DNA from: Populus alba
Lineage: Eukaryota > Streptophyta > Magnoliopsida > Malpighiales > Salicaceae
Reading direction: 5' to 3'
DNA length: 64,000 nt
Assembly: GCF_005239225.2 (NCBI RefSeq)
Contig: NC_133293.1
Coordinates: 2,914,001 to 2,978,000, forward strand
Shown: positions 5,926 to 40,769 of the stretch, piece by piece
How the letters are laid out: each line of letters starts with the position of its first letter
Numbering within the stretch: the stretch's first letter is position 1
The notes under the pieces: generated by a model
What the model was told of the DNA's origin: nothing
Seen by the model: only the letters and a program-made list of their open reading frames with translations
Databases searched by the model: none
Made by a program: the position numbers and the translations under genes

Positions 5926-7519
5926 TGACACGACCAAAAGCTTGATGTCTTTTCCCAAGTGCAGGAGTGTCGAAGTAATAAATAACCCGGCAAGACCGGG
6001 AGTCGAACCACAGAGAGGGTTAATTGTATAAATTATAAATACAAAGACAACAATAATAACAATAATAATAACAATAATAGTAAATAATATAATAATAATA
6101 ATAATAAATAATAATAATAATAAAGAGAGCTTTGAGATGTAAAGTTGATGTAAGGATTAAACAACGATAAAAACAAAATGTCAAGGTTAGAGGATCCACT
6201 AATGGTACTTTCAAACAAGTATAATATAAACTCTTATTACTCAAATTGGAAAACCACACATAAAGGAGGGTTCCAATCAGATTATAAATTGTTAACATGA
6301 TTACATTAGTCATCTTATTCGAATAAAGCTAATACTTGTAAATGTTGGCAGGCATTCATGATTATAACTTATGTTAACAACAAATCAAGTTCCTTTCATA
6401 GCTCAGGTGTCGGTTATACCATACAATATGGGCTATGAAAGTGCCAAGTATTTGTTGTACCAAGTGTTATACAACATAAATCTAGATTAACCATTTAACA
6501 AGCAAAGTATTAAAAGTGAACAAGATAACAAAATATAAAACATGTTAGTATCCAACGTTAAGGTCCATGTTAAGTTTATATTATACTTATTCTTACACCA
6601 TTAGTGTACCCTTTTCACCTTGACATAATAACTTAGCTGAACATAATGAAAGAAAGAAACATAAATGAACAAGATACAAACATAAATGAGAAAGAACTTA
6701 ACTAAGTAAAGGAAAGGAAATAAAGTGCATAAAACTTGATATTAATGAAAGCAAAACATAAGCAATACAAAGAGAGAAGCAATAGCATGATCTTGATCTG
6801 GAAACCAAATGCCTCAATACATGGTAAGTGCCTCCTTTTATAGGCCAAAATTTGGAACTATTGATTTGTTTGACTAATTGATGAGTGGGTGGCCACATCT
6901 TGACTAGATAACAATCCTTATCTTCTTGTCTGATCAAGACATCATTGCTAACATCATAATTTGCCCAGAATCCTCAAGAATGTTCTAGGAAATTGTCTCA
7001 GCTTTCCAACAAAAAAAGATGAGGTCATTTGGACTTCTAGAACTCAAGATATGGGCTGAACACTAAATAGTGTTTGGGCTGCAGGACAGCTTCGGACTTC
7101 TTCGTTGTTCCTTCAATTTGGACTTCAAAACGACCTTTTCAAATCTTGGGCTCCTCATGAAAGTTGTAGGCTTTTGTCTTACCTTTCCATCCATATAAAG
7201 TGGACCTAAATCCGAAATCTAGAGCTCCAGATATGATCCAATTACCGAGCAATGTTCCCGGTTTGGACTGCACGACATCTCTTTTCTAAGTTTGGCCATC
7301 TCTTTGTCCTTTAACTTTCAATGCTTAAACTCATTAATCAAATCCTTTTATTTATGTGATAGTCCTGCATTTAAAATGAGCATTTACCATAAATTAAGGT
7401 GTCTTATAATATCAAACTTGTTATTATAAACATGCTTTAGTTAAGGAGTTATTGATACTTCAAGTGCAAAATGATGATATAAAAACCTTGATAAACATGC
7501 ACTTTTTAAGTACTAATCA
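5926..7519 (-). repeat. 3' LTR of copy A
   Basis: 1594 bp, with TG...CA termini when read on the minus strand (plus-strand ends TGACACG and TAATCA). It pairs with 13713-15288. By eye the two LTRs differ by about seven substitutions but about twenty one-base or short length changes, nearly all in mononucleotide runs. That pattern suggests sequencing error on top of a young insertion. It contains an (ATA)n microsatellite near 6050-6125. Confidence 0.92.
6835..6842 (-). promoter_or_regulatory. TATA box in 3' LTR of copy A
   Basis: TATAAAAG on the minus strand, within 'cctataaaaggaggc', conserved at the equivalent place in all four LTRs of this family. In the 3' LTR it would direct transcription outwards into satellite 1. 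Confidence 0.6.
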
Positions 7520-7806: not shown

Positions 7807-7838
<32 letters not shown>

Positions 7839-8566: not shown

Positions 8567-8568
<2 letters not shown>

Positions 8569-8602
<34 letters not shown>

Positions 8603-8608: not shown

Positions 8609-8651
8609 TTTTTTTTTTAAAACTACTACCCTCTCCCCCCAACCAAAACGA

Positions 8652-8669
8652 GACATTGTCCTCAATGTT
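8652..8669 (-). promoter_or_regulatory. Conserved inverted repeat in 3' region of copy A
   Basis: Plus-strand gacattg-tcct-caatgtt forms a near-perfect 7-bp stem with a 4-base loop. The same hairpin is perfect in copy B at 38611-38628. It lies upstream of the polypurine tract. Function unknown; it could act in RNA structure or packaging. Confidence 0.5.
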
Positions 8670-8806
8670 CGAAGGTAGAAAGATAGAGTATAGAAGACAT
8701 CACCTGAAACAACGAACAATGACAAAACCTGAAACGCACTTAAACAAACATAAAAAGTAACAAAACAAAATAATATGCTATTAATAAAACCAAAAGACAC
8801 AAGGTT

Positions 8807-9462
8807 TCACAGATGAAGGCTCAAATCTAATCTAAGCTTTTTACGACTTTCCTTAGTTGACCAATCTAGACGACTCATGCAGGGATCAATGACAGGGATG
8901 AAAGATTGTAGTTGGTCAATCAATTGTTCAGCAGTAGCAGCAGAGATTATGATTCGTCGTGCCGAAGATGTTAGAAATTCCTGTTCCACAGCTTGATCAA
9001 GGAAAGACAACAACTTATCATAAAAACCATTAACGTTAAAACAAACCTATAGGTTTATGGTGAATGTGCAGTTGGCCCAAGATGAAATATGAAAGATCTC
9101 TTCCAATGTGCCCAGACCACCAGGTAAGGCAATGAAGGCATCAACATGGTTTAAACATGGTATTCAGTCGGTCAGACATTGTTGGGACCTGTAGTTCCTC
9201 TCCAATTGTTTTTCCAATGATGTCCCCAGTTGCTAAAGCTTTGGGGACAACCCCCAAAACTTGACTGCCTTCCTAAAAATGAAGCCATTGACACACCTCC
9301 CATTAACCCAAGGCTGCCTCCCCCATACACTAAATGAATCTTTCTCTCAGCTAGTACCCGACCAAGATGATTTGCTGATTCTAAAAACTCTTTTTCTTTC
9401 CCAGAACTGGATCCACCGAAAACACAAATATTTCTTATATGATGACTTGAGGAACCTGCCAT
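8807..9462 (-). pseudogene. LOG: LOG-type cytokinin riboside 5'-monophosphate phosphoribohydrolase (captured, frameshifted), copy A
   Basis: LOG enzymes release active cytokinin bases from cytokinin nucleotides in one step in the cytosol. The minus-strand reading starts at the ATG at 9462-9460 with ICVFGGSSSG, then GGGSLGLMGG, then PGGLGTLE at about 9101-9125 (the family's PGGxGTxxE signature), and ends at 8807. About 217 codons would be the family's normal length. Compared with copy B there are four one-base length differences: extra bases near 9272, 9156 and 9031 and a missing one near 9076. All four lie in or beside short runs of one base, so the gene does not read through as given. There are no introns, whereas plant LOG genes normally have several, so this looks like a cDNA copy carried by the retroelement. 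The start keeps SSSG in the first motif where copy B has SSPR. Confidence 0.88.
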
Positions 9463-9714: not shown

Positions 9715-10269
9715 CTATGGGTCGGGGATAGGCTTCCCATCCAGTTTTCTTAAAAACTGGCAAACAAGGTCTTTTTTTAGTCAGATTCCCAAGACTAAGT
9801 CGATCATGTTCTTTATGGAATTGTGGCCATAAATCATGAATTACACGATGCACATCTCTCCACTAGGATGCGTCTCAAGGGTCAACAAAAGATTATCTAA
9901 AGACCCCTTACTCAGGCCATCCTTAATGAATTGTATCTTATCTTCACGATTTACAGATACCATTCCTAAAGAACGACATGTCATATTACAAGTCCATCTG
10001 GCACATCGATGACAGACTTTCAGTCGTTTTGCACGACGTTTCTTTGCAAAAGTGCTTTTACCTGTTCCAGGCATGTGTGAAATGAAAGAATTGGAGGACT
10101 CACCTGATAATCGGACCTTTGCTTCAATTAGCCAGCGAATATCTTCAGGAATTCCATGATTCATTAACAACCTCAATCTTGCACACCTAGCACGGTAAAA
10201 TTTTTGTAATCGCATTCTGAGGCAGAGTGGGAAAATACCTTTTTCAACTTTTCAAGAGTGGTGTTCCAT
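9715..10269 (-). pseudogene. Basic cysteine-rich ORF resembling plant-virus nucleic-acid-binding proteins, copy A
   Basis: The clearest open stretch is 9841-10215. It contains a GTGKST motif, a run of basic residues (AKKRRAKRLK), then a C-x2-C-x4-C-x3-C cluster starting CHRC, then VN and QFIKDG. A basic block followed by a CHRC zinc-finger-like cluster and a downstream 'N...QFI+DG' is the plan I associate with the small cysteine-rich proteins of carlaviruses and relatives (Carla_C4 / Viral_NABP families). The spacing between the cysteine pairs is shorter here than I recall for those families. A likely start ATG is at 10269, but that frame is broken soon afterwards, and a one-base difference near 9848 breaks the C-terminal part. 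It sits between integrase and LOG. It could instead be an unrelated retroelement ORF. Confidence 0.45.
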
Positions 10270-10482
10270 TTTAAAATTAGAATTGGGGAAAATATTCAAA
10301 AGAAGGGAGAAAGAGCAGAGAATTGTACAAATATATACAAATATCAGTTATTTGGGAAACTGAAAGAACCGACTTAAGAGTCACGGAGTACCGTTATCGC
10401 GCCATTTGACCGGGGTGAGAGACTAGCAAAACAAAAGTCACACTAAAAAAGCAACAAAAAAAATGTGAGAAAAACAAAATAA
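10270..10482 (-). other. Spacer between integrase C-terminus and cysteine-rich ORF, copy A
   Basis: Non-coding. On the minus strand it is T-rich at first, then holds 'caccccggtcaaatggcg', then a TATATATTTG stretch and a CT-rich leader before the ORF. The same layout occurs in copy B, so a separate promoter or splice signals for the downstream ORFs are possible. I cannot decide which. Confidence 0.4.
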
Positions 10483-11806: not shown

Positions 11807-11839
11807 ATTCAGTTTTTCTCTTCACAGTGCACAAATCTT

Positions 11840-13545: not shown

Positions 13546-13688
13546 GCACGTGTAAGAAGAGAATAAAAGCAAGAAAAGAAAATAGAAAGAAAAAGAAAAA
13601 AACAAAACAAAGGAAACAAAAATAGATAAAATGAAAAGTGAAAAAGAGAAAATAAATTAAATATTATAATTTATAACAAGAATTTACC

Positions 13689-13706
13689 TCCCCGGCAACG
13701 GCGCCA
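13689..13706 (-). promoter_or_regulatory. Primer binding site (tRNA-Asp type), copy A
   Basis: On the minus strand this reads TGGCGCCGTTGCCGGGGA, 6 bp inside the 5' LTR. It is complementary to the 3' end of plant tRNA-Asp including CCA, the primer typical of Athila-type elements. Confidence 0.85.
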
Positions 13707-13712
13707 AAAACT

Positions 13713-13867
13713 TGACACGACCAAAAGCTTGATGTCTTTTCCCAAGTGCAGGAGTGTCGAAGTAATAAATAACCCGGCAAGACCGGGGTCGAACCACAGA
13801 GAGGTTAATTGTATAAATTATAAATACAAAGACAACAATAATAACAATAATAATAACAATAATAGTA

Positions 13868-13899
<32 letters not shown>

Positions 13900-15288
13900 G
13901 AGAGCTTTGAGATGTAAAGTTGATGTAAGGATTAAACAACGATAAAAACAAATGTCAAGGTTAGAGGATCCACTAATGGTACTTCAAACAAGTATAATAT
14001 AAACTCTTATTACTCAATTGGAAACCACACATAAAGGAGGTTCCAATCAGATTATAAATTGTTAACATGATTACATTAGTCATCTTATTCGAATAAAGCT
14101 AATACTTGTAAATGTTGGCAGGCATTCATGATTATAACTTATGTTAACAACAAATCAAGTTCCTTTCATAGCTCAGGTGTCGGTTATACCATACAATATG
14201 GGCTATGAAAGTGCCAAGTATTTGTTGTACCAAGTGTTATACAACATAAATCTAGATTAACCATTTAACAAGCAAAGTATTAAAAGTGAACAAGATAACA
14301 AATATAAAACATGTTAGTATCCAACGTTAAGGTCCATGTTAAGTTTATATTATACTTATTCTTACACCATTAGTGTACCCTTTTCACCTTGACATAATTA
14401 ACTTAGCTGAACATAATGAAAGAAAGAAACATAAATGAACAAGATACAAACATAAATGAGAAAGAACTTAACTAAGTAAAGGAAAGGAAATAAAGTGCAT
14501 AAACTTGATATTAATGAAAGCAAAACATAAGCAATACAAAGAGAGAAAGCAATAGCATGATCTTGATCTGGAAACCAAGATGCCTCAATACATGGTAAGT
14601 GCCTCCTTTTATAGGCCAAAATTTGGAACTATTGATTTGTTGACTAATTGATGAGTGGGTGGCCACATCTTGACTAGATAACAATCCTTATCTTCTTGTC
14701 TGATCAAGACGTCATTGCTAACATCATAATTTGCCCAGAATCCTTAAGAATGTTCTAGGAAATTGTCTCATATTTCCAACAAAAAAAAGATGAGGTCATT
14801 TGGACTTCTAGAACTCAAGATATGGGCTGAACACTAAATAGTGTTTGGGCTGCAGGACAGCTTCGGACTTCTTCGTTGTTCCTTCAATTTGGACTTCAAA
14901 ACGACCTTTTCAAATCTTGGGCTCCTCATGAAAGTTGTAGGCTTTTGTCTTACCTTTCCATCCATATAAAGTGGACCTAAATCCGACATCTAGAGCTCCA
15001 GATATGATCCAATTACCGAGCAATGTTCCGGTTTGGACTGCACCGACATCTCTTTTCTAAGTTTGGCCATCTCTTTGTCCTTTAACTTTCAATGCTTAAA
15101 CTCATCAATCAATCCTTTTATTTATGTGATAGTCCTGCATTTAAAATGAGCATTTACCATAAATTAAGGTATCTTATAATATCAAACTTGTTATTATAAA
15201 ACATGCTTTAGTTAAGGAGTTATTGATACTTCAAGTGCAAAATGATGATATAAAACCTTGATAAACATGCACTTTTAAGTACTAATCA
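13713..15288 (-). repeat. 5' LTR of copy A
   Basis: 1576 bp, plus-strand ends TGACACG and TAATCA. It is the promoter-bearing LTR of copy A, with TATAAAAG on the minus strand at 14606-14613. An (ATA)n microsatellite lies at about 13836-13898. It is paired with 5926-7519. Confidence 0.92.
14606..14613 (-). promoter_or_regulatory. TATA box of 5' LTR, copy A
   Basis: TATAAAAG on the minus strand, followed by 'gaggcacttaccatg'. It is the likely promoter for the genomic transcript of copy A. Confidence 0.65.
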
Positions 15289-20929: not shown

Positions 20930-21720
20930 CAGCGAAAACTAAGTCGGTGGTGACCCTGAAATCATCAGCGAACTCTCCATCACTGCTGAACCATAAATCA
21001 TCATCGAAAACTGAGTGATGGCTGACGTATGCAATCCGCATAGAAAACAAAGTTGCTCCTCACACTAAAATCATCAGCAAAAACTAAGTCGCTGCTGGCC
21101 CTGAAATCATCAGCGAACTCTCTGTCATTGCTGAACAATAAATCATCACTGAAAACTGAGTGATGGCTCACGCATGGAATCTGCATTGAAAAAAAAGTTG
21201 CTCCTCACACTGAAATCATCACCGAAAACTGTGTTTCCGTTGACCTTGAAATCATCAACAAAAACTGAGTTATGGATGACGTATTGAATCATCAGCGAAA
21301 ACTAACTCGTTGGTGACACTGAAAACGTCAGCGAACTCTCCTTCACTGCTGAACCATAAATCATCATCGAAAACTTAGTGATGGCTGACGCATGGAATCC
21401 GCATAGAAAACAAAGTTGCTCCTCACACTGAAATCATCAGTGAAAACTAAGTCGTTGCTGGCCCTGAAATCATCAGCGAACTCTCTGTCATTGCTGAACA
21501 ATAAATCATCACTGAAAACTGAGTGATGGCTCACGCATGAAATCTGCATTGAAAAAAAAGTTGCTCCTCACACTCAAATCATCACTGAACACTGCGTTTC
21601 CGCTGACCTTGAAATCATCAACAAAAACCGAGTTATAGGTGACACGTTGAATCATCAGCGAAAACTAACTCACTCGTGACCCTGAAATCGTCAGCGAACT
21701 CTCTGTCACTGCTGAACCAT
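20930..21720. repeat. 363-bp higher-order repeat pair in satellite 1
   Basis: The blocks beginning 'tcatcatcgaaaact.agtgatggctgacg' at 21000 and 21363 are near-identical for a full ~363-bp period (one 145-bp plus one 217-bp unit). Identical ordering in tandem indicates recent local duplication. Confidence 0.75.
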
Positions 21721-21868
21721 AAATCATCATCGAAAACTTAGTGATGGCTCACGCATGGAATCCGTCATTGCTGAACCATAAATCATCACCGAAAATTAAG
21801 TGACGAATGACGCATGGCATCCTTATAGAAAACAAAGTTGCTCCTCACACAGAAATCATCACCGAAAA

Positions 21869-27800: not shown

Positions 27801-30800
27801 AAAGCGATCAACGGTTGGATCTATAGTTATGGACCTTGACCCGTTACTCTAGTCATGTCGGTGCTATTGCCTGATCTGATGTCGTCGGTGCGGAGTACCG
27901 ATTCAAAGCTACTCCAAGTAAAATAGCCTCCAAAAACTCCTAAAAAACATTTTAGTGCGATCCAACGGTCGGATCTTTAGTTATGGAGTTTTTGGGTCAG
28001 TACCCTAGTTATGTCCGTGATATACCACGACCGAACATCATCTGAGTGGAGTACCAGTTCCATGCTACTCTTTGTAAAACAACCTACGGAAACTCGTGTA
28101 AAACATTTTAGATCGATCCAATGGTTGGATCTTTAGTTATGGACCTTTTGACCCGGTATTCTGGTCGTGTCGGTGGTATTGCCTGACCGGACGTCATTTG
28201 CGTGGAGTACCGATTCCACGTTACTCCATGTAAAACAGCCTCCGGAAACTTCTGAAAAACATTTTAGGGTGATCCACCGGTTGGATCTATAGTTCTGGAC
28301 GTTTAGGGCCGGTGGTATATTCGTGTGGGTGGTATGGCCAGATTGGACGTTATCGATATGGAGTTCCCATTCTACGCTACTCCTTGTAAGACAACCTACT
28401 GAAACTCGTGAAAAAAATTTTAGAGCGATCCAACAGTTGGATCTTTAGTTATGGACCATTTGAGCCGGTACTCTAGTCGTGTCGGTGATATTGCCTGACC
28501 AGACATCATCTGCGTGGAGTACCGATTCCACGCTACTCCATGTAAAAGAGCCTATGGAAACTAGTGAAAAACATTTTAGAGTGATCCAACGGTCGGATCT
28601 ATAGTGATAGACCTTTTGGGCTGGTACCCTGGTCGTTTTAGTGGTATGGCCCGACCGGACGTCATTGGCGTGGAGTACCGATTCCACACTACTCCTTGGA
28701 AAACAGCCTACTGAAACTTGTGAAAAAAATTTTAGAGCGATCGAATGGTCGGATCTTTAGTTATGAACCTTTTAAGCCGGTACTCTAGTCATGTCGGTGG
28801 TATTGCCCGACCAGACGTCGTCTGCGTGGAGTACCGAGTCCACGCTACTTCATGTAAAACAGCCTTCGAAAGCACCTAAAAAACATTTTAGAGTGATCCA
28901 ACGGTCGGATCTATAGTTATGGACCTTTTGCGCCGGTACACTTGTCGTGTCGGTGGTATTGCTCGATAGAACGTCGTCTGCGTGGAGTACCGAGTCAACG
29001 CTACTCCTTGTAAAACATCCTCTGGAAACTCCTGAAAAAGATTTTAGAGCGATCCAACAATCGGATCTATACTTATGAACCTTTTTTGCTGGTACTCTGG
29101 TCGTGTCGGTGGTATTGCCCGACCTGACGTCGTCGGTGTGGAGTATCGATTCCACGCTACACCTTGTGAAACAACCTATTGAAATTTTAGAGCGATCGAA
29201 CGGTTGGATATTTAGTTACGGGCCTTTTGGCCCGTTACTCTTGTCGTGTCGGTGGTATTGCCCAACCGGATGTCAACGGCGTGGAGTACAGATTCCAAGC
29301 TACTACAAGCAAAACAAGCTCCAAAAACTCCTAAAAAACATTTTAGCGCGATCCAACGGTCGGATCTTTAGTTATGGAGCTTTTGGGCCGGTACCCTTGT
29401 CATGTCTGTGATATTCCACGATCGGACATCATCGGAGTGGAGTACCGGTTCCACACTACTCCTTTTAAAATAGACTCTAGAAACTCCTGAAAAATATTTT
29501 AGAGCGATCCAACGGTCGGATCTATAGTTATGGACCTTTTGGCCCATTACTCTTGTCGTGTCGGTGGTATTGCCCAATTGGATGTCGTCGGCGCAGAGTA
29601 CAGATTCCAAGCTACTACAAAACAAGCTCCGAAAACTCCTAAAAAACATTTTAGCGCGATCCAACGGTAGGATCTATAGTTATGGACCTTTTGGCCCGGT
29701 ATTCTGCTCGTGTCGGTAACATTCCCAGACCGAACGCCGTCGGTGCGAATTATCGATTCCACGCTACTCCATCTTGAACAGCCTCCAAAAACTCTTGAAA
29801 AATATTTTAGAGTGATACAACGATCTGATCTATAGTTATGGACCATTCGGGCCGGTTCTCTGGTCGTGTCCGTGGTATTACCCGACCGTACATCGTCAAC
29901 GTGGAGTACCGATTCCACTATACTCCATGTAAAACAGCTTCCGGAAACTCCTGAAAAACATTTTAGAGCGATTAAACGGTCGGATCTATAGTTATGGACC
30001 TTTGGGGTCGGAACTCTTGTTGTGTCAGTGGTATTGCCCAACCAGACGTTGTAAGCTTGGAGTACCGATTCCATGTTACTCCTAGTAAAACAGCCTATGG
30101 AAACTTGTGCAATACATTTTAGAGAGATCTAATGGTTGGATCTTTAGTTATGGACCTTTTGACCCGGTATTCTGGTTGTGGTGGTGGTATTGCTTGATTG
30201 GACGTCCTCTGCGTGGAGTACCGATTCCATGCTACTCCATGTAAAACAGCCTTCGAAAACTCCTGAAAAACATTTTAGAGCGATCCAACAGTAGGATCTA
30301 TAGTTATTGACCTTTTGGCTCGTTACTCTGGTCGTGTCGGGGCTATTGCCTGACCGGATGTCGTCGTTGCGGAGTACCGATTCCAAGCTACTCCAAGTAA
30401 AAAGCCTCTGAAAACTACTGAAAAATATTTTAGCGCGATCCAACGGTCGGATCTATAGTTATGGACCTTTTTGGCCGGTACCCTAGTCTTGTCTGTGGTA
30501 TTGTCCGACTGTACGTCGTCGACGTGGAGTATGTGTGGAGTACCGAGTCCACACTACTCCATGGAAAACAGCCTCCGGAAACTCCTGAAAAACATTTTAG
30601 AGCGATCCAATGGTCGGATCTTTAGTTATGGACCTTTGGACCTGATATTCTGGTCATGTCGGTGGTATTGCCAGACCAGACGTCCTCTGCGTGGAGTACC
30701 AATTCCAGCTACTCCATGTAAAACAGCCTCCAGAAACTTTTGAAAAAAATTTTAGAGCGGTCCAATGGTCGGATCTATAGTTAAGGACCTTTTGGCTCGT

Positions 30801-31726
30801 TACTCTGGTCGTGTCGATGTTATTGCTTGACCGGATGTCATCGACGCGGAGTACCGATTCCAAGCAACTCCAAGTAAAAAGCCTCCAAAAACTCCTAAAA
30901 AATATTTTAGCGCGATCCAACGGTCGAATCTATAGTTATGGACCTTTTAGGCCAGTACCCTAGTCCTGTCCGTGGTATTGTCTGATCGTACATCGTCAGC
31001 GGGGAGTACCTAGTCCACGCTACTCCATGTAAAACATCCTCTGGAAACTCCTGAAAAACATTTTAGAGCGATGCAACGGGCGGATCTATAGTTATGGACC
31101 TTTTGGGCCGGTACTCTTGTCGTGTCGGTGGCATTGCCCGACTGGACGTCGTCTGCGTGGAGTACCGAGTCCACGCTACTCCATATAAAACAACTGAAAA
31201 ACATTTTAGAGCGATCTAACGGTCGTATCTATAGTTATGGACCTTTTTGGCCGATACGCTGGTCGTGTCGATGATATTGCCCGACCAGACGTCATCAGCG
31301 TGGAGTACCACTTCCATGCTACTCCTTGTAAAATAATCTACGAAAACTCGTGAAAAAAATTTTAGATCGAACCAACGGTCGGATCTTTAGTTTTGGACCT
31401 TTTGAGCTGGTATTCTAGTCATGTTGGTGGTATTGCCCAATCAGACGACGTCGGGGTGGAGTACCGAGTCCAAGCCACTCCATGTAGAACCGCCTCCTAA
31501 GACTCCTGAAAAATATTTTAGAGCGATCCAACGGTCGGATATTTAGTTATTGACCTTTTGAGCCGGTACTCTAGTCGTGTCAGTGGTATTGCCTGACCGG
31601 ACGTCGTCTGCGTGGAGTACCAAGTCCACTCTACTCCATGTAAAACATCCTCTGGATACTCCTGAAAAACATTTTAGAGCGATCCAACGGTTGGATCTTT
31701 AGTTATTGACCTTTTGAGCCGGTACT
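21869..31726. repeat. Satellite 2 array, block a (156-bp monomer)
   Basis: About 63 tandem monomers of 156 bp; 'gatccaacgg'-type starts fall at 21891, 22047 and 22203. The consensus carries 'ttttagagcgatccaacgg', 'tcggatctatagttatgg', 'ccttttgggccggtactct', 'ggtattgcccgaccggacg', 'gagtaccgattccacgct' and 'actccatgtaaaacagcc'. The monomer equals 52 codons, so the minus strand stays open over several copies (e.g. 25077-25940). This is a length effect, not coding evidence. Satellite 2 shares no overall similarity with satellite 1. Confidence 0.93.
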
Positions 31727-32400
31727 TGATTAGTACTTAAAAGTGCATGTTTATCAAGGTTTTATATCATCATTTTGCACTTGAAGTATCAATAACTCCT
31801 TAACTAAAGCATGTTTTATAATAACAAGTTTGATAATATAAGATACCTTAATTTATGGTAAATGTTCATCTTAAATGCAGGCCTATCACATAAATAAAAG
31901 GATTGAATGATGATTTTAAGTATTGAAAGTGAAAGGACAAAGAGATGGCCAAACTTAGAAAAGAGATGTTGGTGTAGTCCAAACCGGAATGTTGCTCGGT
32001 AATTGGATCATATCTAGAGCTCTAGATCTCGGATTTAGGTCCATTTTATATGGATGGAAAGGTAAGACAAAGGCCTATAACTTTATGAGGAGCCCAAGAT
32101 TTAAAAAGGTCATTTTGAAGTCCAAATTGAAGGAACAACGAAGAAGTCCGAAGCTGTCCTGCAGCCCAGACACTATTTAATGTTCAGCCCATATCTTGAG
32201 TTCTAGAAGTCCAAATGACCTCATCTTTTTTTTGTTGGAAAGCTGAGACAATTTCCTAGAACTTTCTTGAGGATTCTGGGCAAAATATTATGTTAGCAAT
32301 GACATCTTATTCAGACAAGAAGATAAGGATTGTCACCAAGTCAAGATGTGGCCACCCACTCATCAATTAGTTAACAAATCAATAGTTCCAAATTTTGGCC

Positions 32401-32408
32401 TATAAAAG
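32401..32408 (+). promoter_or_regulatory. TATA box of 5' LTR, copy B
   Basis: TATAAAAG followed by 'gaggcacttaccatg', conserved in every LTR of the family. Likely start of the genomic transcript downstream. Confidence 0.65.
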
Positions 32409-33132
32409 GAGGCACTTACCATGTATTGAGGCATCTTAGTTTTCAGATCAAGATCATGCTCTTGCTTTCTCTCTTTGTATTGCTTATTTTTTGCTTTCAT
32501 TAATATCAAGTTTATGCACTTCATTTCCTTTCCTTTACTTAGTTAACTTTTTTCTCATTTATGTTCTTATCTTGTTCATCTATGTTTCTTTCTTTTATTA
32601 TGTTTAGCTAAGTTAATTATGTCAAGGTGAAAAGGGTACACTAATGGTGTAAGAATAAGTATAATATAAACTTAACATGGACCTTAACGTTGGATACTAA
32701 CATGTTTTATATTTGTTATCTTGTTCACTTTTAATACTTTGCTTGTTAAATGGTTAATCTAGATTTATGTTGTATAACACTTGGTACAACAAATACTTGG
32801 TACTTTCATAGCCCATACTGTATGGTATAACCGACACCTGAGCTATGAAAGGAACTTGATTTGTTGTTAACATAAGTTATAATCATGAATGCCTGCCAAC
32901 ATTTACAAGTATTAGCTTTATTCGAATAAGATAACTAATGTAATCATGTTAACAATTTATTCGAATAAGTATTAGCTTTATGTGTGGTTTCCAATTGAGT
33001 AATAAGAGTTTATATTATACTTGTTTGAAGTACCATTAGTGGATCCTCTAACCTTGACATTTATTTTTATCGTTGTTTAATCCTTACATTAATCTTTCAT
33101 CTCAAAGTTCTCATTAATTTCTTCATCTTCTT

Positions 33133-33157
33133 GTTCTTTTATTACTACTACTACTTT

Positions 33158-33189
<32 letters not shown>

Positions 33190-33350
33190 TTACTATTAGT
33201 ATTATTATTATTATTATTATTATTTACATTCTGTTTATATTATATAATATATCTCTTTGATCTTTTCATAAACTCGGTATATAGGCTGGAAACCTATAAC
33301 CCGATCTTTTAGATCATTCTCAAGTGTAACAACGCCATGTACTGAGTATT

Positions 33351-33388
<38 letters not shown>

Positions 33389-33390
33389 CT
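33133..33390. repeat. Microsatellite cluster in 5' LTR of copy B
   Basis: (ACT)n at about 33143-33188, (ATT)n at about 33199-33226 and (TTG)n at about 33350-33388. Copy A has only an (ATA)n run here. Confidence 0.85.
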
Positions 33391-33513
33391 TGTTATTTAT
33401 AATTTATACAATTAACCTCTCTGTGGTTCGACCCCGGTCTTGCCGAGTTATTTATTACTTCGATGCTCCTGCACTTGGGAGAAGACATCAAGCTTTTGGT
33501 TGTGTCAAGTTTT

Positions 33514-33531
33514 TGGCGCCGTTGTCGGGGA
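33514..33531 (+). promoter_or_regulatory. Primer binding site (tRNA-Asp type), copy B
   Basis: TGGCGCCGTTGTCGGGGA, 6 bp after the LTR end. It matches the copy A site except for T at 33525 in place of C, which leaves one mismatch to tRNA-Asp. Confidence 0.85.
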
Positions 33532-33670
33532 GGTAAATTCTTGTATAAATTATAATATTTAATTTATTTTCTCTTTTCACTTTTCATTTTATCTAACTTT
33601 TGTTTTCTTTGTTTTGTTTTGTTTCTTTTTCTTCTATTTTCTTTTCTTCCTTTTATTCTCTTTTTACACG

Positions 33671-35455
33671 TGCATGCGAGTTTGGTCACGTACATTAAGT
33701 GGTAGACTTTATAGGGTATCCTCATCATTTTCAAAAAATATGGCTGAAAAAGATAATCAATCGCTCCATAATGAGAATAATGAGAATAACCGTATGAGAA
33801 CACTTAGAGACCACATGAATCCCACAAGAACAAGTGCACCCTCATGCATAGTTTTCTCTCCTGATGCATCGCATTTTAATTTTAAGACAAACATTATTCA
33901 ACTTTTACCTTCTTTTCATGGCTTAGACCTAGAAAATCCATACTTGCATTTAAGGGAATTTGAGGAAGTCTGTAATACCTATAATGACTCAAATTGTAGC
34001 ATGAACACCATTAGATTAAAGCTTTTTCCTTTTTCATTAAAAGATAAAGCTAAAACATGGCTATAAAATTTGAGACCAGGATCTATTCGTGCTTGGGATG
34101 AAATGCAACAACAATTTTTAAAGAAGTTTTTTCCGTCTCACAGAACAAACTCTTTCAAAAGACAAATCATCACTTCACTCAAAAACCAGGAGAAACATTT
34201 TACCAATGTTGGGATAGGTATCGAGATTTGCTTAATACTTGCCCTCATCATAGTTTTGAAACATGGAGATTGGTTTCACATTTTTATGAAGGTTTAACAC
34301 CTAGAGATAGGCAAATTGTTGAATTGATGTGCAATGGAACTTTCGAAGATAAAGACCCTAATGAAGCAATGGAATACATAGACTTGCTAGCCGAAAATGC
34401 TCAAAATTGGGACACCACAGGTACTTATGAGGCACCAAGTAAAACTCAACCTCATACATCTAGTGGAGGTATGCACAACCTTAGGGAAAATCATGACCTC
34501 CAAGCCAAGTTTGCATCTTTAGCTAGAAAAGTCGAAGCACTTGAATTGAAAAAGAGTGGTCAATTAAAATCTATTCAAGACATTGTGTGTCAAATATGTG
34601 AAACCAAGGAACACTCAACAAATGATTGTCCAACTTTGCCTTCTTTTAGGGAATGCCTCCATGAACAAGCCCATACTTTAAACAGTTTCTAAAGACCCAA
34701 CCATAACCCATACTCACAAACATATAACCCCGGTTGGAGAAATCACCCAAATTTCAGTTGGAAGAGTGATAGCAACAATGCACAAACTTCATAGCCACCG
34801 TTTCAAGCACACCATAATTTTCAAAATTCTCATGGATATGCACCTCCTTATGCTCCACCTCCTAGAAGAAATCTTGAGGAAACATTGCATGCATTCATTG
34901 AAAAGCAAGAGGTAATCAACACTCAACTTGCTCAAGACATGACAGATTTTAAAGATGCTCTTGCAAAATTGACATTTGCTCTCAGTTTCCAAGAGAAAGG
35001 TAAGTTTTCATCTCAACCACAACAAAATACAAAGGGGCAATACAATGTAAATGCGAGTAGTTTTGGAAGCCAACACATGGATCAAGTCAAATCAGTCATC
35101 ACTCTTCGTAGTGGTAAGGTTATTGAAAAACCCATTCTTGAACCTTGTGAGAAAGATGACGAGTCTATCTCTGAGGGTAAGGAAGGGGTTGAACTTGAAC
35201 ATTGCAAAGAAAAGGCTGATTCCCCGCCAGCACTTCCATTTCCTCATGCCATGACCAAACAAAGGAAAGTCAATCACAACTCTGAAATCTTTGAAACTTT
35301 CAAACAGGTAAGGATCAATATACCTTTGTTGGATGCTATTAAACAGGTACCTTCCTATGCTAAATTTTTGAAAGATCTATGCACTGTGAAGAGAAAACTG
35401 AATGTGAAAAAGAAAGCCTTTTTAGCCGAACAAACAGGTACCTTCCTATGCTAAA
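33671..35455 (+). pseudogene. gag: gag, copy B (stops and frameshifts)
   Basis: It begins at the ATG at 33671 (MRVWSRTLSG); a second in-frame ATG lies at 33740. The Gag core follows: FHGLDLENPYLHLREFEE, then LKLFPFSLKDKAKTWL. It is interrupted by an in-frame TAA near 34064. The frame continues (RPGSIRAWDEMQQQFLKKFF), shifts near 34215-34230, and then carries the zinc knuckle C-x2-C-x4-H-x4-C (CQICETKEHSTNDC). It stops again at about 34690 (TAA). The C-terminal part 34885-35454 contains MDQVKSVITLRSGK. The order of parts matches copy A, but the breaks differ, so they arose independently after transposition or during sequencing. Confidence 0.78.
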
Positions 35456-35522
35456 TTTTTGAAAGATCTATGCACTGTGAAGAGAAAACTGAATGTGAAA
35501 AAGAAAGCCTTTTTAGCCGAAC
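35341..35522 (+). repeat. 91-bp tandem duplication at the gag/protease junction, copy B
   Basis: The segment from 'aaacaggtaccttcctatgc' to 'tttttagccgaacaa' (35341-35431) is repeated at once at 35432-35522. Copy A has one copy only. As 91 is not a multiple of three, the duplication itself shifts the frame between gag and protease. Confidence 0.9.
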
Positions 35523-36160
35523 AAGTAAGTGCCATTCTTCAAAACAATAATGCTTTGAAATATAAAGACCCTGGTTGTCCTACAATTTCTTGCTTTATTG
35601 GAGAGCATAAAATTGAAAGAGCCTTACTTGATCTTGGAGCTAGTGTGAATTTACTTCCATATTCAGTCTTTCAGAGTCTCAATCTAGGTGAGTTAAAACC
35701 AACTTCTGTAACTCTTTTACTTGCTGATAGATCGGTAAAAGTGCCTAGAGGAATAGTTGAAGATGTGTTAGTACAAGTCGATAATTCATTTATCCTGTGG
35801 ATTTTATTGTCTTGGACATGCAACCTGTTGAAGCATGTAATTCATTTCCTATTATTTTAGGACGTCCATTTCTTGCCACTTCTAATGCATTGATTAATTC
35901 TAGGAATGGACTCATGAAGTTATCTTTTGGAAACATGACATTGGAGATGAATATTTTCAACATTTGCAAGCAACCTGGAGATGATAATGATTTACAAGAA
36001 GTAGATCTTATTGAAGAAGTAGTTCATGATCAACTTGAATCTACTTTGAGTAAAATTGAGTTGGATGAATCTGAAGATTTGCAACTGATTTATTCTCAGG
36101 AAGAAATCACGGATGAAAAAGGCACCAAAAATATTGATGCTGATCTTGTGTCAAAAGTGA
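35459..36160 (+). pseudogene. Aspartic protease with RNase H tail (pol remnant), copy B
   Basis: Protease active site DLGAS at 35630-35644, followed by VNLLPYSVF and LADRSVKVPRG. A single missing A near 35785 (relative to copy A) shifts the frame. The downstream frame 35797-36468 continues with IILGRPFL, an acidic stretch, and DEKGTKNIDADLVSKV at about 36112-36159, which matches the C-terminal end of RNase H. Reverse transcriptase and the rest of RNase H are missing between the acidic stretch and that tail, as in copy A. The protein would process Gag if intact. Confidence 0.78.
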
Positions 36161-36812
36161 CAACAGATTTGACATCTGATATCCCACCAATCGATGATTA
36201 CTCTCCTGATGAATCCTTATTTTCTCTTAGTTCAATGCCTTGGTTTGCTAAAAATATCAATTTTCTTCCTTTAGGAGATGTGCCAGCTCATTGGAGTACT
36301 GAAGACAAAGGAAAGTTTTTGAACAAAGTGAAGAACTTTTATTGGGATGACCCTGACTTACTCAAATATTGTCCTGATCAAAAATTTCAAAGATGCATTC
36401 CTGACAATGAGGTAAGTAGCGTCATTAAACTTTGTCATTTTGAAGCATGTGGGAGTCATTCTCATTAAGAAAGACAACTGCAAAAATCTTACAAAATGGA
36501 TTTTATTGGCTCACCATGTTCAAGGACACACATGCATTCTGCAAAATTTGTGAAAATCATCAAAAAGTTGATACTGGTAAAAAAATTTTGCTTTATAATT
36601 CTCGACTCCATTTATTTCCTGAAAAACTAAGATCAAGATGGAGCGGTCCATTTATTTTGAAACATGTGTATCCTTATGGGGCCCTTGATATTGAGAATCC
36701 AAAGAATGACAATGTTTTGAAGGCAAATGAACATCGTTTAAAAGCTTACTTTGATGAGTTTCCTAGTGAAAATGAATCCATTGGTTTGAATGATCTTATT
36801 GATAAAGGTTGA
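36161..36812 (+). pseudogene. Integrase remnant (zinc-binding N-terminus plus C-terminal domain), copy B
   Basis: It starts with the linker SSMPWFAKNINFL and continues with KFLNKVKNFYWDDPDL. The HHCC region is split by a frame change near 36455-36470 after ACGSH. The second part carries FYWLTMFKDTHAFCKICENHQK, where copy A has C-x2-C; copy B has lost the last zinc ligand (C to H). The frame passes straight to LRSRWSGPFILKHVYPYGALDIENP, the GPF-type C-terminal domain, and ends at 36812. The catalytic DDE core is entirely absent, with the same junction as copy A. Confidence 0.78.
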
Positions 36813-37023
36813 TTATTTTGTTTTTCTCACATTTTTTTGTTCCTTTTTGGTGTGACTTTTGTTTTGCTAGTCTCTCTCTCACCCCGGTCAAATGGCGGAT
36901 AACGGTACTCCGTGACTTAAGTCGGTTCTTTCAGTTTCCCAAATAACTGATATCTGTATATATTTGTACAATTCTTAGCTTTTTCTCTCTTCTTTGAAAC
37001 TCTTCTCTAATTCTCTTTTGAAA
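36813..37023 (+). other. Spacer between integrase C-terminus and cysteine-rich ORF, copy B
   Basis: Non-coding, T-rich then mixed, with TATATATTTG near 36957 and a CT-rich leader before an ATG at 37024. It could hold an internal promoter for the accessory ORFs. It is conserved with copy A. Confidence 0.4.
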
Positions 37024-37579
37024 ATGGACACCACTCTGAAAAATTGAAAAATTGAAAAAGTATTTTCCCGCTCTGCCTCAGAATGCGATTACAAAAATTT
37101 ACCGTGCTATGTGTGAAAGATTGAGGTTGTTAATGAACCATGAAATTCTTGAAGATATTCGTTGGCTGATTGAAGCAAAGGTCCGATTATCAGGTGAGTC
37201 CTCCAATTCTTTCATTTCACACATGCCTGGAACAGGTAAAAGCACTTTTGCAAAGAAACGTCATGCAAAACGACTAAAAGTCTGTCACAGATGTGCCAGA
37301 TGGACTTGTAATGCGACATGTCATTCTTTAGGAATGGTATCTGTAAACCGTGAAGATAAAATACAATTCATTAAGGATGGCCTGAGTAAGGGGTCTTTAG
37401 ATAATCTTTTGTTGACCCTTGAGACGCATCCTAGTGGAGATGTGCATCGTGTAATTCATGATTTATGGCCACAATTCCATAAAGAACATGATCGACTTAG
37501 TCTTGGGAATCTGACTAAAAAAGACCCTGTTTGCCAGTTTTTAAGAAAACTGGATGGGAAGCCTATCCCCGACCCATAG
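37024..37579 (+). pseudogene. Basic cysteine-rich ORF resembling plant-virus nucleic-acid-binding proteins, copy B
   Basis: The long frame runs from about 37052 to a TAG at 37577-37579. Its first in-frame ATG is at 37109. An ATG at 37024 fits copy A's start, but its frame ends after seven codons. Counting the frame from 37052, there is GTGKST at residues 60-65, a basic block at 68-76 (AKKRHAKRLK) and cysteines at 78, 81, 86 and 90 (C-x2-C-x4-C-x3-C, 37283-37321). VNREDKIQFIKDG and a ~60-residue tail with no recognised motif follow. The order of basic block, CHRC cluster and 'QFIKDG' resembles the nucleic-acid-binding/silencing-suppressor proteins of carlavirus-like viruses. The cysteine spacing and tail differ, so homology is unproven. 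No other viral gene is nearby. Confidence 0.45.
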
Positions 37580-37817
37580 AGGGCATTTAAGTCGTTCTTG
37601 GACATAAAACCAAGGGAAGATGTGAGCCACAATCACAACTACCAGTACATACATGCTTTGTCAAAATAAATAAATAAAGAGAGAGTGTGTGAGACTACAG
37701 CTGGCCTACATATAGGTGGTATGATTGCATTTTCACTTTTTCCTCTATAAATTCTTCTCTTCCTTCCCTTCATTTCTACTCATCCCATACATTCATCAAA
37801 TATAGAAGTGTGTAGAA
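37580..37817 (+). other. Intergenic spacer upstream of LOG, copy B
   Basis: About 240 bp with an 'aataaataaataaagagagag' microsatellite-like stretch, a TATA box at 37746 and a CT-rich leader up to the LOG ATG. No coding sequence. Confidence 0.6.
37746..37753 (+). promoter_or_regulatory. TATA-like box upstream of LOG, copy B
   Basis: TATAAATT, 72 bp before the LOG ATG and followed by 'cttctcttccttcccttc', a typical plant pyrimidine-rich leader. Identical in copy A. Confidence 0.5.
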
Positions 37818-38474
37818 ATGGCAGGTTCCTCAAGTCATCACATAAGAAATATTTGTGTTTTCGGTGGATCCAGTCCTAGGAAAGAAAAAGAGTTTTTTAG
37901 AATCAACAAATCATCTTGGTCGGGTACTAGCTGAGAGAAAGATTCATTTAGTGTATGGGGGAGGCAGCCTTGGGTTAATGGGAGGTGTGTCAATGGCTGC
38001 ATTTTTAGGAGGCAGTCAAGTTTTGGGGGTTGTCCCCAAAGCTTTAACAAATGGGGACATCATTGGAAAAACAATTGGAGAGGAACTACAGGTCCCAACA
38101 ATGTCTGATCGACTGAACGCCATGTTTAGCCATGTTGATGCCTTCATTGCCTTACCAGGTGGTCTAGGCACATTGGAAGAAATCTTTCATATTTCATCTT
38201 GGGCCCAACTGCACATTCACCATAAACCTATAGGTTTGTTAAATGTTAATGGTTTTTATGATAAGTTGCTATCTTTCCTTGATCAAGTTGTGGAACAGGA
38301 ATTTCTAACATCTTCGGCACGACAAATATCATAATCTCTGCTGTTATTGCTGAACAATTGATTGACCAACTACAATCTTTCATCCTTGTCATTGATCCCT
38401 GCATGAGTTGCCTAGATTGGTCAATTAAGGAAAGCCGTAAAAAGCTTAGATTAGATTTGAGCCTTCATTTGTGA
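37818..38474 (+). pseudogene. LOG: LOG-type cytokinin riboside 5'-monophosphate phosphoribohydrolase (captured, frameshifted), copy B
   Basis: Start ATG at 37818 (MAGSSSHH, then ICVFGGSS). An extra T in a T run near 37898, relative to copy A, moves the frame. The long open part to 38334 then carries LAERKIHLVYGGGSLGLMGG (GGGSLGLMG at 37957-37983), a conserved Arg in SDRLNAMF, PGGLGTLEE (38155-38181, the LOG signature PGGxGTxxE) and the WAQL and KPIGLLNV blocks. A two-base gain near 38325 returns to the original frame, which ends at TGA 38472-38474, so total length is 218 codons plus stop. Between the two shifts the core is intact. LOG converts cytokinin nucleotides directly to free cytokinins. 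The gene is intronless here, unlike typical plant LOG genes, consistent with capture through RNA. Confidence 0.9.
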
Positions 38475-39570
38475 AACATTGTGTCTTGTGGTTTTATTAA
38501 TAGCATATTATTTTGTTTTGTTACTTCTTATATTTGTTTAAGTGTGTTTCAGATTTGTCATTGTTCACTGTTTCAGGTGATGTCTTCTATACTCTATCTT
38601 TCTACCTTAGGACATTGAGGACAATGTCTTGTTTTGGTTGGGGGGAGAGGGTAGTAGTTTAAAAAAAAAACCTACCAACTAACTGTTTTTGTTTTTAAAA
38701 AAAACCATTTGGCAAAACTGTTATTACTAGGATGGCAGAGTAAAGAGGAATTATTCTTGAGACGCATCTTAGTAAAAATTTTCTAATGGTTATTTGCAAT
38801 ATTCATAACAAGGCCTATTAGAATACTTCTTGAAATATTCAGGTTTACAAACTCTCACATTGTTATCACTTGATTCTGCTCATATACTCATTTAACAAGT
38901 ATTATTAAACCTTCATTTTCACACACACACTTTAACATATGATTGTGGGTTGCACATTGGATTATTACATTATTTATGTTCTTTTGTTAAAGGTAACAAC
39001 TAAGGGAAAGGGATAATATATAATTTGCAAAAAAAAAAAATATTGATAATATTGATGATAATAAAAACGTAGATAAGTTTGGTTTCGTAGCCTCCCTAAC
39101 CTAAGCAATTAAGCCCGAAGGGGTGTTTTAACACCTAATACCCTAAAGTCAACTGACTTGGGAGCTATTGGCCCAAAGCTTGTTACATGGGTTAAAGATA
39201 CATTGTGTTTTAAGTTGTATGTGTATATAAATAAAATAAAAAGAAGAAGAAAAAAAAAAGAGAAAAAAAAAGAAGAAAAAAAAAGTAATAATAATAATAA
39301 TCACAACCCAAGGAAGTTCACCCTAAACATTTGAACATAATATTGTTTTCTTCCAACAAAAGCCCCATCATCTATGTTTTCATAAATTGAGCACATAAAA
39401 AGAAAGTTTATTAATATCTTGTTTAAGAAGTATGAAGCAGGAATATAAATTTAATGAGAGTTTGTTTATCTGGATAGATTAATGAAAGTTGAATGATGAA
39501 TGCCTTGCTTTGTGAAACTTGCAAATTGTTTCTCTATTTTAACGCTTTAGATTACTAGGGACTAGTAATA
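38475..39570 (+). other. 3' non-coding region of copy B between LOG and the polypurine tract
   Basis: No gene. It contains the hairpin at 38611-38628 followed by 'ttggttggggggagagg', poly(A) runs, and one copy of the 'aacccatgtaac...aacacc' repeat (about 39110-39200) that copy A carries twice. The single copy joins left and right parts of the two repeats, as expected from deletion by recombination between direct repeats. Confidence 0.6.
38611..38628 (+). promoter_or_regulatory. Conserved inverted repeat in 3' region of copy B
   Basis: gacattg-agga-caatgtc is a perfect 7-bp stem with a 4-base loop, directly upstream of a G-rich stretch. It is nearly identical in copy A. Role unknown. Confidence 0.5.
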
Positions 39571-39586
39571 AGCTGGTTAGGGGGTG
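39571..39586 (+). promoter_or_regulatory. Polypurine tract of copy B
   Basis: agctggttagggggtg, ending at the 3' LTR's TGATTAG. The run is interrupted by 'tta', where copy A has 'ttgggggg', so it is slightly decayed. Confidence 0.7.
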
Positions 39587-40769
39587 TGATTAGTACTTAA
39601 AAGTGCATGTTTATCAAGGTTTTATATCATCATTTTGCACTTGAAGTATCAATAACTCCTTAACTAAAGCATGTTTTATAATAACAAGTTTGATAATATA
39701 AGATACCTTAATTTATGGTAAATGTTCATCTTAAATGCAGGCCTATCACATAAATAAAAAGATTGAATGATGAGTTTAAGTATTGAAAGTGAAAGGACAA
39801 AGAGATAGCCAAACTTAGAAAAGAGATGCTGGTGTAGTCCAAACCGGAATATTGCTCGGTAATTGGATCATATCTAGAGCTCTAGATCTCGGATTTAGGT
39901 CCATTTTATATGGATGGAAAGGTAAGACAAAGGCCTAAAACTTTATGAGGAGCCCAAGATTTAAAAAGGTCATTTTGAAGTCCAAATTGAAGGAACAACG
40001 AAGAAGTCCGAAGCTGTCCTACAGCCCAGACACTATTTAATGTTCAGCCCATATCTTGAGTTCTAGAAGTCCAAATGACCTCATCTTTTTTTTGTTGGAA
40101 AGCTGAGACAATTTCCTAGAACATTCTTGAGGATTCTGGGAAAATTATGATGTTAGGAATAACGTCTTATTCAGACAACAAGATAAGGATTGTCACCAAG
40201 TCAAGATGTGGCCACCCACTCATCTATTAGTCAACAAATCAATAGTTTCAAATTTTGGCCTATAAAAGGAGGCACTTACCATGTATTGAGGCATCTTGGT
40301 TTTCAGATCAAGATCATGCTCTTGCTTTCTCTCTTTGTATTGCTTATGTTTTGCTTTCATTAATATCAAGTTTATGCACTTCATTTCCTTTCCTTTACTT
40401 AGTTAACTTCTTTCTCATTTATGTTCTTATCTTGTTCATCTATGTTTCTTTCTTTTATTATGTTTAGCTAAGTTAATTATGTCAAGGTGAAAAGGGTACA
40501 CTAATGGTGTAAGAATAAGTATAATATAAACTTAACATGGACCTTAACGTTGGATACTAACATGTTTTATATTTGTTATCTTGTTCACTTTTAATACTTT
40601 GCTTGTTAAATGGTTAATCTAGATTTATGTTGTATAACACTTGGTACAACAAATACTTGGTACTTTCATAGCCCATACTGTATGGTATAACCGACACCTG
40701 AGCTATGAAAGGAACTTGATTTGTTGTTAACATAAGTTATAATCATGAATGCCTGCCAACATTTACAAT
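39587..40769 (+). repeat. Truncated 3' LTR of copy B
   Basis: 1183 bp matching 31727-32909 of the 5' LTR with 21 substitutions and no indels. It breaks off after 'gcctgccaacatttacaa', and satellite 2 resumes mid-monomer with 'taaaacagcc'. About 600 bp of LTR, the target duplication and part of a monomer are missing. Confidence 0.9.

What the first reader, a model, noticed from the sequence alone, without database searches (positions are those of the whole stretch)
36813..39586. Retrotransposon family carrying a LOG cytokinin gene plus a virus-like cysteine-rich ORF in the env-like position
Both element copies (A 5926-15288, B 31727-40769) carry the same two non-retroviral ORFs between integrase and the 3' LTR: a basic cysteine-rich ORF and an intronless LOG with the PGGxGTxxE signature. 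Two independent insertions with identical cargo mean capture preceded amplification, so this is a family and not a chance insertion. Cytokinin activation paired with a putative nucleic-acid-binding protein could favour transposition in dividing or meristematic cells, where LOG activity matters. That role is inference. I know of no described plant retroelement with this pair, but I cannot search.
Basis: partly seen in the sequence, partly recalled or inferred. Interest (0 to 1): 0.9.

Follow-up and report, generated by a model that had tools for sequence, protein, structure and literature searches.

The report
Poplar retrotransposons carrying a hormone-enzyme gene
A large family of poplar retrotransposons carries two extra genes, one related to an RNA-virus nucleic-acid-binding protein and one to the plant enzyme that activates the hormone cytokinin; both genes show the mark of selection in copies elsewhere in the genome and would likely help the element spread through dividing cells, but the two copies in this window are broken.

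Summary
The cargo is real and belongs to a family. Both window elements carry a carlavirus-type nucleic-acid-binding gene (NABP) and a LOG gene between integrase and 3' LTR. They are separate Athila-like insertions in Populus alba satellite DNA, both without reverse transcriptase or integrase core, and both with frame-broken cargo. Elsewhere the same pair sits in elements that keep reverse transcriptase and integrase. Intact LOG (217 aa) and NABP (182 aa) frames are common, with dN/dS 0.18-0.33 against 0.66-0.75 in a neutral simulation. Element LOGs from Populus, Xanthoceras and Acer form one clade apart from 23 host LOGs, and separate captures in Populus and Xanthoceras are rejected, so the capture is probably old. 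Poplar element LOGs keep the catalytic residues but change three of five pocket positions, so a cytokinin role there is unproven. A conserved in-frame peptide follows the NABP stop codon, a candidate readthrough extension. LOG in Athila-like elements was already reported (2011, 2022); I found no paper joining the virus-type gene to a retroelement in an open-paper library. A module acting on silencing and host cell state is the best mechanism, untested.

The parts
31727..33507 (+). Element B 5' LTR (end placed by comparison with A)
   Evidence: 98.22% identical to B's 3' LTR over 1182 bp
33514..33531 (+). Element B primer binding site, Athila/tRNA-Asp type (one base differs from A; tRNA assignment recalled)
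33614..36468 (+). Element B gag-protease remnant in several frames, aspartyl-protease match at 35459-35860 (below Pfam cut-off); reverse transcriptase/RNase H absent
36447..36812 (+). Element B integrase remnant (zinc-binding region and C-terminal end; core absent)
   Evidence: (Integrase_H2C2, E 3e-4, 21.3 bits, below the 25.5 cut-off)
37024..37579 (+). Element B carlavirus-type NABP gene; open frame 37052-37579 from an internal TTG, upstream frame broken
37577..37645 (+). Conserved in-frame peptide after the NABP TAG stop (candidate readthrough extension)
37818..38474 (+). Element B LOG-type gene without introns, broken by frame changes
39587..40768 (+). Element B 3' LTR, truncated
5926..7519 (-). 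Element A 3' LTR
8801..9462 (-). Element A LOG-type gene, motifs in three frames (broken)
9715..10255 (-). Element A NABP gene (aligned part), broken; best open frame 124 aa
10483..10896 (-). Element A integrase remnant
13689..13706 (-). Element A primer binding site
13713..15288 (-). Element A 5' LTR

Best explanation
These are two broken, non-autonomous copies of a probably old, Athila-like retrotransposon family that carries a virus-type nucleic-acid-binding gene and a LOG-type enzyme gene after its integrase, a pair that likely works as an accessory module helping the element against silencing and toward dividing cells. Shown: the pair is in the same order in copies with and without reverse transcriptase; intact frames are frequent; substitutions are mostly synonymous; element LOGs from two plant orders group together apart from host LOGs. 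Inferred: the NABP, like carlavirus relatives, would enter the nucleus, bind nucleic acid, weaken silencing and promote cell division. Inferred: LOG would release active hormone bases from nucleotide precursors, as host LOGs do. Together they would raise the chance that a new copy enters cells that form shoots or gametes. Inferred for poplar: LOG keeps the hydrolase chemistry but its substrate may have shifted.
For: Family size: LOG profile, 150 of 150 scored places match, of 1248 first-look candidates, on 22 contigs; NABP DNA 40 of 40 scored, of 1271. Anatomy: of 20 LOG loci of 10 kb, 9 keep the RT-side and integrase-core stretches, 6 share B's deletions, 3 have a larger deletion into NABP, 2 are partial; Pfam finds RT in L016, RNase H and integrase core in L028. 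Linkage: LOG DNA beside NABP in 28 of 30 loci taken by NABP, and in 10 of 10 taken by the 3' non-coding stretch, 7 of 10 with an intact 217-aa frame. Selection: LOG dN/dS 0.264 (25 copies), NABP 0.248 (21 copies); LOG sampled without regard to LOG 0.330, leave-one-out 0.284-0.398; neutral simulation 0.66-0.75, net between subfamilies 0.204. Grouping. Same order in Acer: gene model P0255 is NABP then LOG. Viral relative as silencing suppressor and hyperplasia factor: PMC12172455 (passages). LOG fold: model pLDDT 78.9, best PDB matches Arabidopsis LOGs, TM 0.91-0.93 by target and 0.74-0.78 by query length.
Against: Three of five prenyl-pocket positions differ in the poplar element LOGs (7 of 7 rows), and PMC4979012 (passages) reports almost complete loss of activity when binding residues, Lys100 among those it lists, were changed to alanine. 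The Acer model P0255 lacks the catalytic Arg and its NABP part lacks the cysteine stretch. No expression, protein or enzyme data. NABP similarity to the viral family covers about 80 residues; its model is poor (pLDDT 50.8). A derivative class has lost two thirds of NABP yet keeps LOG, so the two need not act together. Only 7 of 30 NABP-sampled loci have a LOG frame of 200 aa or more. Ratios rise among the most similar pairs (dS under 0.05: LOG 0.406, NABP 0.516), in the mini class (0.361, 3 copies), and single simulated neutral pairs went as low as 0.36-0.39.
Confidence: 0.5

Rival explanations
1. Passive cargo: the two genes were picked up by chance and ride along; intact frames only reflect recent amplification from a few source copies.
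For: A and B are broken; only 7 of 30 NABP-sampled loci keep a LOG frame of 200 aa or more; A and B inserted fairly recently (LTR identity 99.4% and 98.2%); ratios rise toward neutral among the most similar pairs.
Against: dN/dS 0.18-0.33 also in samples picked by another feature, against 0.66-0.75 under simulated neutrality; net ratio between subfamilies 0.204; both genes present in Populus and Sapindales.
Confidence: 0.12
2. The poplar LOG has left cytokinin chemistry and hydrolyses another nucleotide, for example a modified RNA breakdown product or a nucleotide defence signal, to protect the element.
For: Catalytic Arg99 and Glu122 and the PGG-GT-EE loop kept while His97, Lys100 and Glu125 are changed in 7 of 7 poplar rows; P0282 and P0348 have two of the three changed; purifying selection continues.
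Against: No substrate evidence; Xanthoceras element LOGs keep the full canonical pocket in 3 of 3 rows.
Confidence: 0.25
3. A and B derive from one segmental duplication, so the shared cargo is one event.
For: Both in one 64-kb window with the same internal deletions.
Against: Different LTR identities, unlike flanks, opposite strands, own target duplication for A, and the deletion type is shared with 6 other fetched copies elsewhere in the genome.
Confidence: 0.02
4. The LOG is a host gene in use by the plant, spread by the element but kept by host-level selection.
For: Public records name poplar members LOGL10 (P0210, P0349), which fall in the element clade.
Against: Canonical host LOG exons are a separate set (16 sites in the genome); host-level selection on so many near-identical copies is unlikely (inference).
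Confidence: 0.05

Closest known systems
Athila-like elements with a LOG-like extra ORF (Steinbauerova et al. 2011, Genetica; not held, abstract recalled) and YgdH-domain LTR consensuses in Citrus and P. trichocarpa (PMC9289625, section 12 read)
   Same: LOG-type gene in Ty3/gypsy elements, in Sapindales and Populus
   Different: The section read names no carlavirus-type partner gene and gives no selection test, common origin or pocket change for LOG; the 2011 paper itself was not seen
Carlavirus NABP/CRP, e.g. chrysanthemum virus B p12
   Same: Pfam Carla_C4 and Viral_NABP matches; basic stretch followed by cysteines
   Different: Element protein is 182 aa with further conserved N- and C-terminal parts and sits in an integrated retroelement beside LOG
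Plant host LOG enzymes (Arabidopsis structures 2a33, 1ydh)
   Same: Fold, nucleotide loop, catalytic Arg and Glu; about 50% identity
   Different: No introns (host introns recalled); extra basic C-terminal tail; poplar pocket changed at three positions
Orchid Gypsy elements with an AlkB-type RNA demethylase (PMC9289625)
   Same: Enzyme gene captured by a Ty3/gypsy element and kept over many copies
   Different: Other enzyme; there activity was shown in vitro, here it was not tested

Membership tests
Athila lineage (Ty3/gypsy) | gag-protease-RT-RNase H-integrase order | tested here: met
   Two relatives read: protease then RT in L016, RNase H then integrase core in L028; A and B have lost RT, RNase H and integrase core
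Athila lineage (Ty3/gypsy) | Primer site complementary to tRNA-Asp next to the 5' LTR | tested here: met
   TGGCGCCGTTGCCGGGGA in A; that this pairs with tRNA-Asp and is the Athila type is recalled; PMC6317226 passages list tRNA-Asp among non-chromovirus primers
Athila lineage (Ty3/gypsy) | Forward extra ORF between pol and 3' LTR | tested here: met
   NABP and LOG
Athila lineage (Ty3/gypsy) | RT placed in the Athila clade by phylogeny, no second RNase H | not tested
   No reference set of plant RTs at hand
Type-I LOG | Fold and PGGxGTxxE loop | tested here: met
   25 of 25 P. alba copies with open frames keep PGG-GT-EE; fold
Type-I LOG | Catalytic Arg and Glu | tested here: met
   7 of 7 poplar rows; by motif Arg in 24 of 25 P. 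alba copies (one unmatched) and Glu in 25 of 25; Acer P0255 has Leu for Arg
Type-I LOG | Prenyl pocket Met96, His97, Lys100, Glu125, Trp129 | tested here: not met
   Poplar: His97, Lys100, Glu125 changed in 7 of 7; Xanthoceras element LOGs: met in 3 of 3
Type-I LOG | NCBIfam equivalog score for cytokinin LOG | tested here: not met
   NF058542: 112 bits poplar, 127.5 Xanthoceras, cut-off 300; no plant host LOG was scored, so this may only reflect a bacterial model
Type-I LOG | Cytokinin nucleotide phosphoribohydrolase activity | not testable with these tools
   needs enzyme assay
Carlavirus-type NABP | Pfam gathering score | tested here: met
   Carla_C4 26.3 bits (cut-off 20.9), Viral_NABP 23.0 (cut-off 23)
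Carlavirus-type NABP | Basic stretch plus cysteine motif | tested here: met
   KKRRAKR or close, then Cys 85, 88, 93, 97 invariant in 10 of 10 rows
Carlavirus-type NABP | Descent from a virus gene rather than the reverse | tested here: inconclusive
   Scan of viral contigs gave no relative; no viral rows for a tree

The most novel reading that the evidence does not exclude
An old lineage of plant retrotransposons carries its own two-gene program for steering the host cell: a virus-type nuclear regulator, possibly with a stop-codon-readthrough form, plus a hormone-releasing enzyme. The module was captured once before the spread into Populus and Sapindales, kept under selection, and in poplar its enzyme has been retuned to a new nucleotide substrate.
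Probability: 0.3. Interest if true: 0.87.

Novelty: new variant of a known kind. Interest (0 to 1): 0.66.

Why it matters
If the module works as proposed, a mobile element makes a plant hormone signal and a silencing-related regulator of its own, which ties transposon success to meristem biology and makes the open question of what Athila 3' ORFs do testable with two small proteins. It also points to exchange between RNA viruses and retroelements, and warns that poplar gene models named LOGL10 and the poplar miR2912 family may come from these elements.

Tried and rejected
Segmental duplication rejected. Separate nested insertions of the two genes: same order, and a spacing of 236-271 bp in 18 of 26 copies measured (the others mostly have a broken frame on one side); no own boundaries seen. 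Independent LOG captures in Populus and Xanthoceras rejected by AU tests (p 7.9e-46 and 2.5e-49; groups chosen after seeing the first tree). Plasmid records gave no NABP match; viral contigs gave no relative of NABP or LOG, so the direction of virus/element transfer stays open. PDB has no NABP relative by sequence; the NABP model was too poor for a fold search, so none was run. RNA folding after the NABP stop: 90 nt z -1.25 (26 of 200 shuffles as good), 150 nt z -2.36 (2 of 200); not conclusive. Introns of host LOG genes were not checked here; that plant LOGs have introns is recalled. LTR dating in years was left out because the rate would be recalled.
Full report
Where it is. The window is C10:2914001-2978000 of a 416-Mb, 96-contig genome. 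Contig lengths 54846348, 16454697 and 20300730 equal those listed for Populus alba proteins P0065, P0131 and P0142, so the source is taken as Populus alba. The two elements interrupt satellite arrays.

The observation. Element A (minus strand, 5926-15288) has LTRs of 1576 and 1594 bp with 10 mismatches in 1570 aligned bases (gaps apart) and a 5-bp duplication AAGGG. Element B (plus strand, 31727-40768) has a 3' LTR truncated to 1182 bp, 98.22% identical to its 5' LTR. The flanks differ and interior pieces are 93.7%, 94.2% and, for a 422-bp piece, 90.3% identical, so these are two insertions. In both, the stretch between the integrase remnant and the 3' LTR holds an NABP gene and a LOG gene. 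B's NABP reaches Pfam's cut-offs for Carla_C4 (26.3 bits, cut-off 20.9) and Viral_NABP (23.0, cut-off 23). All four genes in the window are broken: A's LOG motifs fall in three frames, B's in two, A's best NABP frame is 124 aa, and B's NABP frame starts at an internal TTG.

The family. The LOG profile matched 150 of 150 scored places of 1248 candidates, on 22 contigs, most with open frames near 220 aa; the list is biased to good frames because only the best are scored. Of these, 20 were read as 10-kb stretches. Nine (L012, L014, L016, L019, L020, L023, L025, L026, L028) carry an extra stretch on the RT side where B lacks it (about 1.56-1.58 kb in eight, 1.05 kb in L020) and a second of about 0.73 kb inside the integrase. 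Six (L009, L010, L011, L015, L017, L021) lack both, as B does. Three (L013, L018, L024) have a larger deletion into NABP. L022 and L027 are partial or nested. In the two first-class loci that I translated, the extra stretches encode RT (L016, E 9.8e-22), and RNase H (E 2.7e-38) and integrase core (L028, E 5.8e-9); frames are interrupted in both. The window copies are thus members of an amplified deletion subfamily that would depend on relatives. The primer site after the 5' LTR is of the Athila type (type recalled).

Two samples drawn without regard to LOG. The 30 best of 59 loci found by the NABP profile: 28 have LOG DNA beside NABP and 7 have a LOG frame of 200 aa or more; 20 of the 30 were fetched as only 1651 bases. 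Ten loci (ranks 2-11 of the 40 best matches to B's 3' non-coding stretch): 10 have LOG and 7 have the full 217-aa frame; these are the copies most like B.

Selection. Nei-Gojobori ratios on frames open as they stand: LOG 0.264 (25 copies), 0.282 (7 NABP-sampled) and 0.330 (7 sampled by the 3' stretch, leave-one-out 0.284-0.398); NABP 0.248 (21 copies), 0.182 (9 LOG-sampled) and 0.304 (12 NABP-sampled). Among the most similar pairs (dS under 0.05) the ratios are higher, LOG 0.406 and NABP 0.516, as decay after insertion would give. A neutral simulation with the LTR mutation spectrum that only forbids stops gives 0.66-0.75, with single pairs down to 0.36-0.39 in 40 runs each. The net ratio between two LOG subfamilies is 0.204. 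Copies with the RT stretch give 0.247 (8), RT-less 0.225 (6) and the mini class 0.361 (3). The duplicate loci L001-L008 and all copies without a near-full frame were dropped before these counts.

Origin. A tree of 40 LOG rows (16 labelled element, 23 host, 1 bacterial) puts the 16 on one branch (93/95; 92% of 200 bootstrap trees). Without four rows (bacterial outgroup, P0348, AtLOG8, Acer P0255) the split is 100/100. Trees joining poplar element LOGs to the poplar and willow host LOGs, or Xanthoceras element LOGs to the Xanthoceras host LOG, are rejected (p 7.9e-46 and 2.5e-49; groups chosen after the first tree). Five of the 16 element rows come from unnamed sequences and are labelled by their tail and place only. 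Host rows are those that the searches listed, mostly LOG7 types. Xanthoceras P0203 joins LOG to a stretch like the gag linker of L016 (seen by eye). Acer P0255 is one gene model of NABP followed by LOG, without the cysteine stretch and without the catalytic Arg, so that copy is degenerate. NABP relatives occur in Xanthoceras and Acer (P0081, P0099). Populus is Malpighiales and Acer Sapindales. One old capture fits best; transfer between lineages is not excluded.

The enzyme. The model of a P. alba element LOG (P0131) is confident except its ends (pLDDT 78.9) and matches Arabidopsis and bacterial LOGs. Numbered as in C. glutamicum LOG (PMC4979012, passages), poplar rows keep catalytic Arg99 and Glu122 and the nucleotide loop but have Ser for His97, Leu or Met for Lys100 and His for Glu125, in 7 of 7 rows. 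Xanthoceras rows are canonical in 3 of 3, host rows in 23 of 23, and P0282 and P0348 are intermediate. The 16 element rows carry a basic tail (such as KKRRL, KRRRLD, KKLRLDL) that the 21 full-length host rows lack (the two Arabidopsis rows were cut short). So the ancestral element enzyme looks like a normal cytokinin-releasing LOG, and the poplar branch a hydrolase with an altered pocket. That reading is inference.

The partner. Carlavirus-type proteins act as silencing suppressors, and chrysanthemum virus B p12 as a transcription factor that induces hyperplasia (PMC12172455, passages). Ten NABP rows share a basic stretch and four invariant cysteines. After the NABP stop an in-frame peptide RAFKPFLDVKPREDVSHNHNYLY is kept in 44 of 49 places; the stop is TAG in 48 of 49 (TGG in one), though the search pattern itself held the TAG with up to 4 substitutions allowed. 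Variants in the peptide are 10 synonymous and 13 nonsynonymous, pN/pS 0.30, small numbers. Diversity is 0.02-0.04 over the NABP end and the peptide and 0.10-0.15 beyond, but the start of LOG is also at 0.10-0.14, so low diversity alone does not show coding. Acer P0255 has nearly the same peptide fused on. Readthrough is predicted, not shown.

Literature. LOG in Athila-like elements is in print: PMC9289625 (section 12 read) cites Steinbauerova et al. 2011 (not held; abstract recalled as naming two Athila-like elements similar to LOGL4). For the NABP half I searched and saw no listed paper joining it to a retroelement; some searches were the LOG searches. PMC3136472 (passages) reports a flexivirus replicase-like sequence in cucumber, not this gene. 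The library holds open papers only.

Verdict. A real and abundant family, probably old; the window copies are dead. Known kind, with a notable partner gene, evidence of selection and a changed enzyme pocket. The cell-state mechanism is plausible and untested.

Noticed in passing
window 37577-37643 (+) and 9717-9651 (-); Acer P0255: Conserved in-frame peptide directly after the NABP TAG stop, with coding-like variation (pN/pS 0.30, small numbers): candidate stop-codon readthrough.
   Followed up: partly
window 7036-7191, 14807-14962 (+), 32053-32207, 39913-40067 (-): All four LTRs match Rfam MIR2912 at 106-111 bits on the strand opposite to the element; the many-membered poplar miR2912 family (PMC6431645, passages) is probably LTR-derived small RNA.
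   Followed up: partly
P0210, P0227, P0349: Poplar proteins named LOGL10 in public records are close to the element LOGs (P0210 and P0349 were put in the tree and fall in the element clade), so they may be retroelement genes annotated as host genes.
   Followed up: partly
window 35341-35522: Exact 91-bp tandem duplication inside element B's gag-protease remnant; A and the relatives whose matches span it show it once.
   Followed up: no
window around 15295-31726 and 40769-64000: Satellite arrays (about 156-bp period near B, other spacing near A) around both elements, possibly centromeric.
   Followed up: no
L013, L018, L024: A further deletion class loses the integrase end and about the first two thirds of NABP but keeps an open LOG frame (213-217 aa).
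   Followed up: partly
window 37740-37800: TATA-like sequence and pyrimidine-rich stretch upstream of the LOG start, as if LOG had its own promoter inside the element (seen by eye).
   Followed up: no
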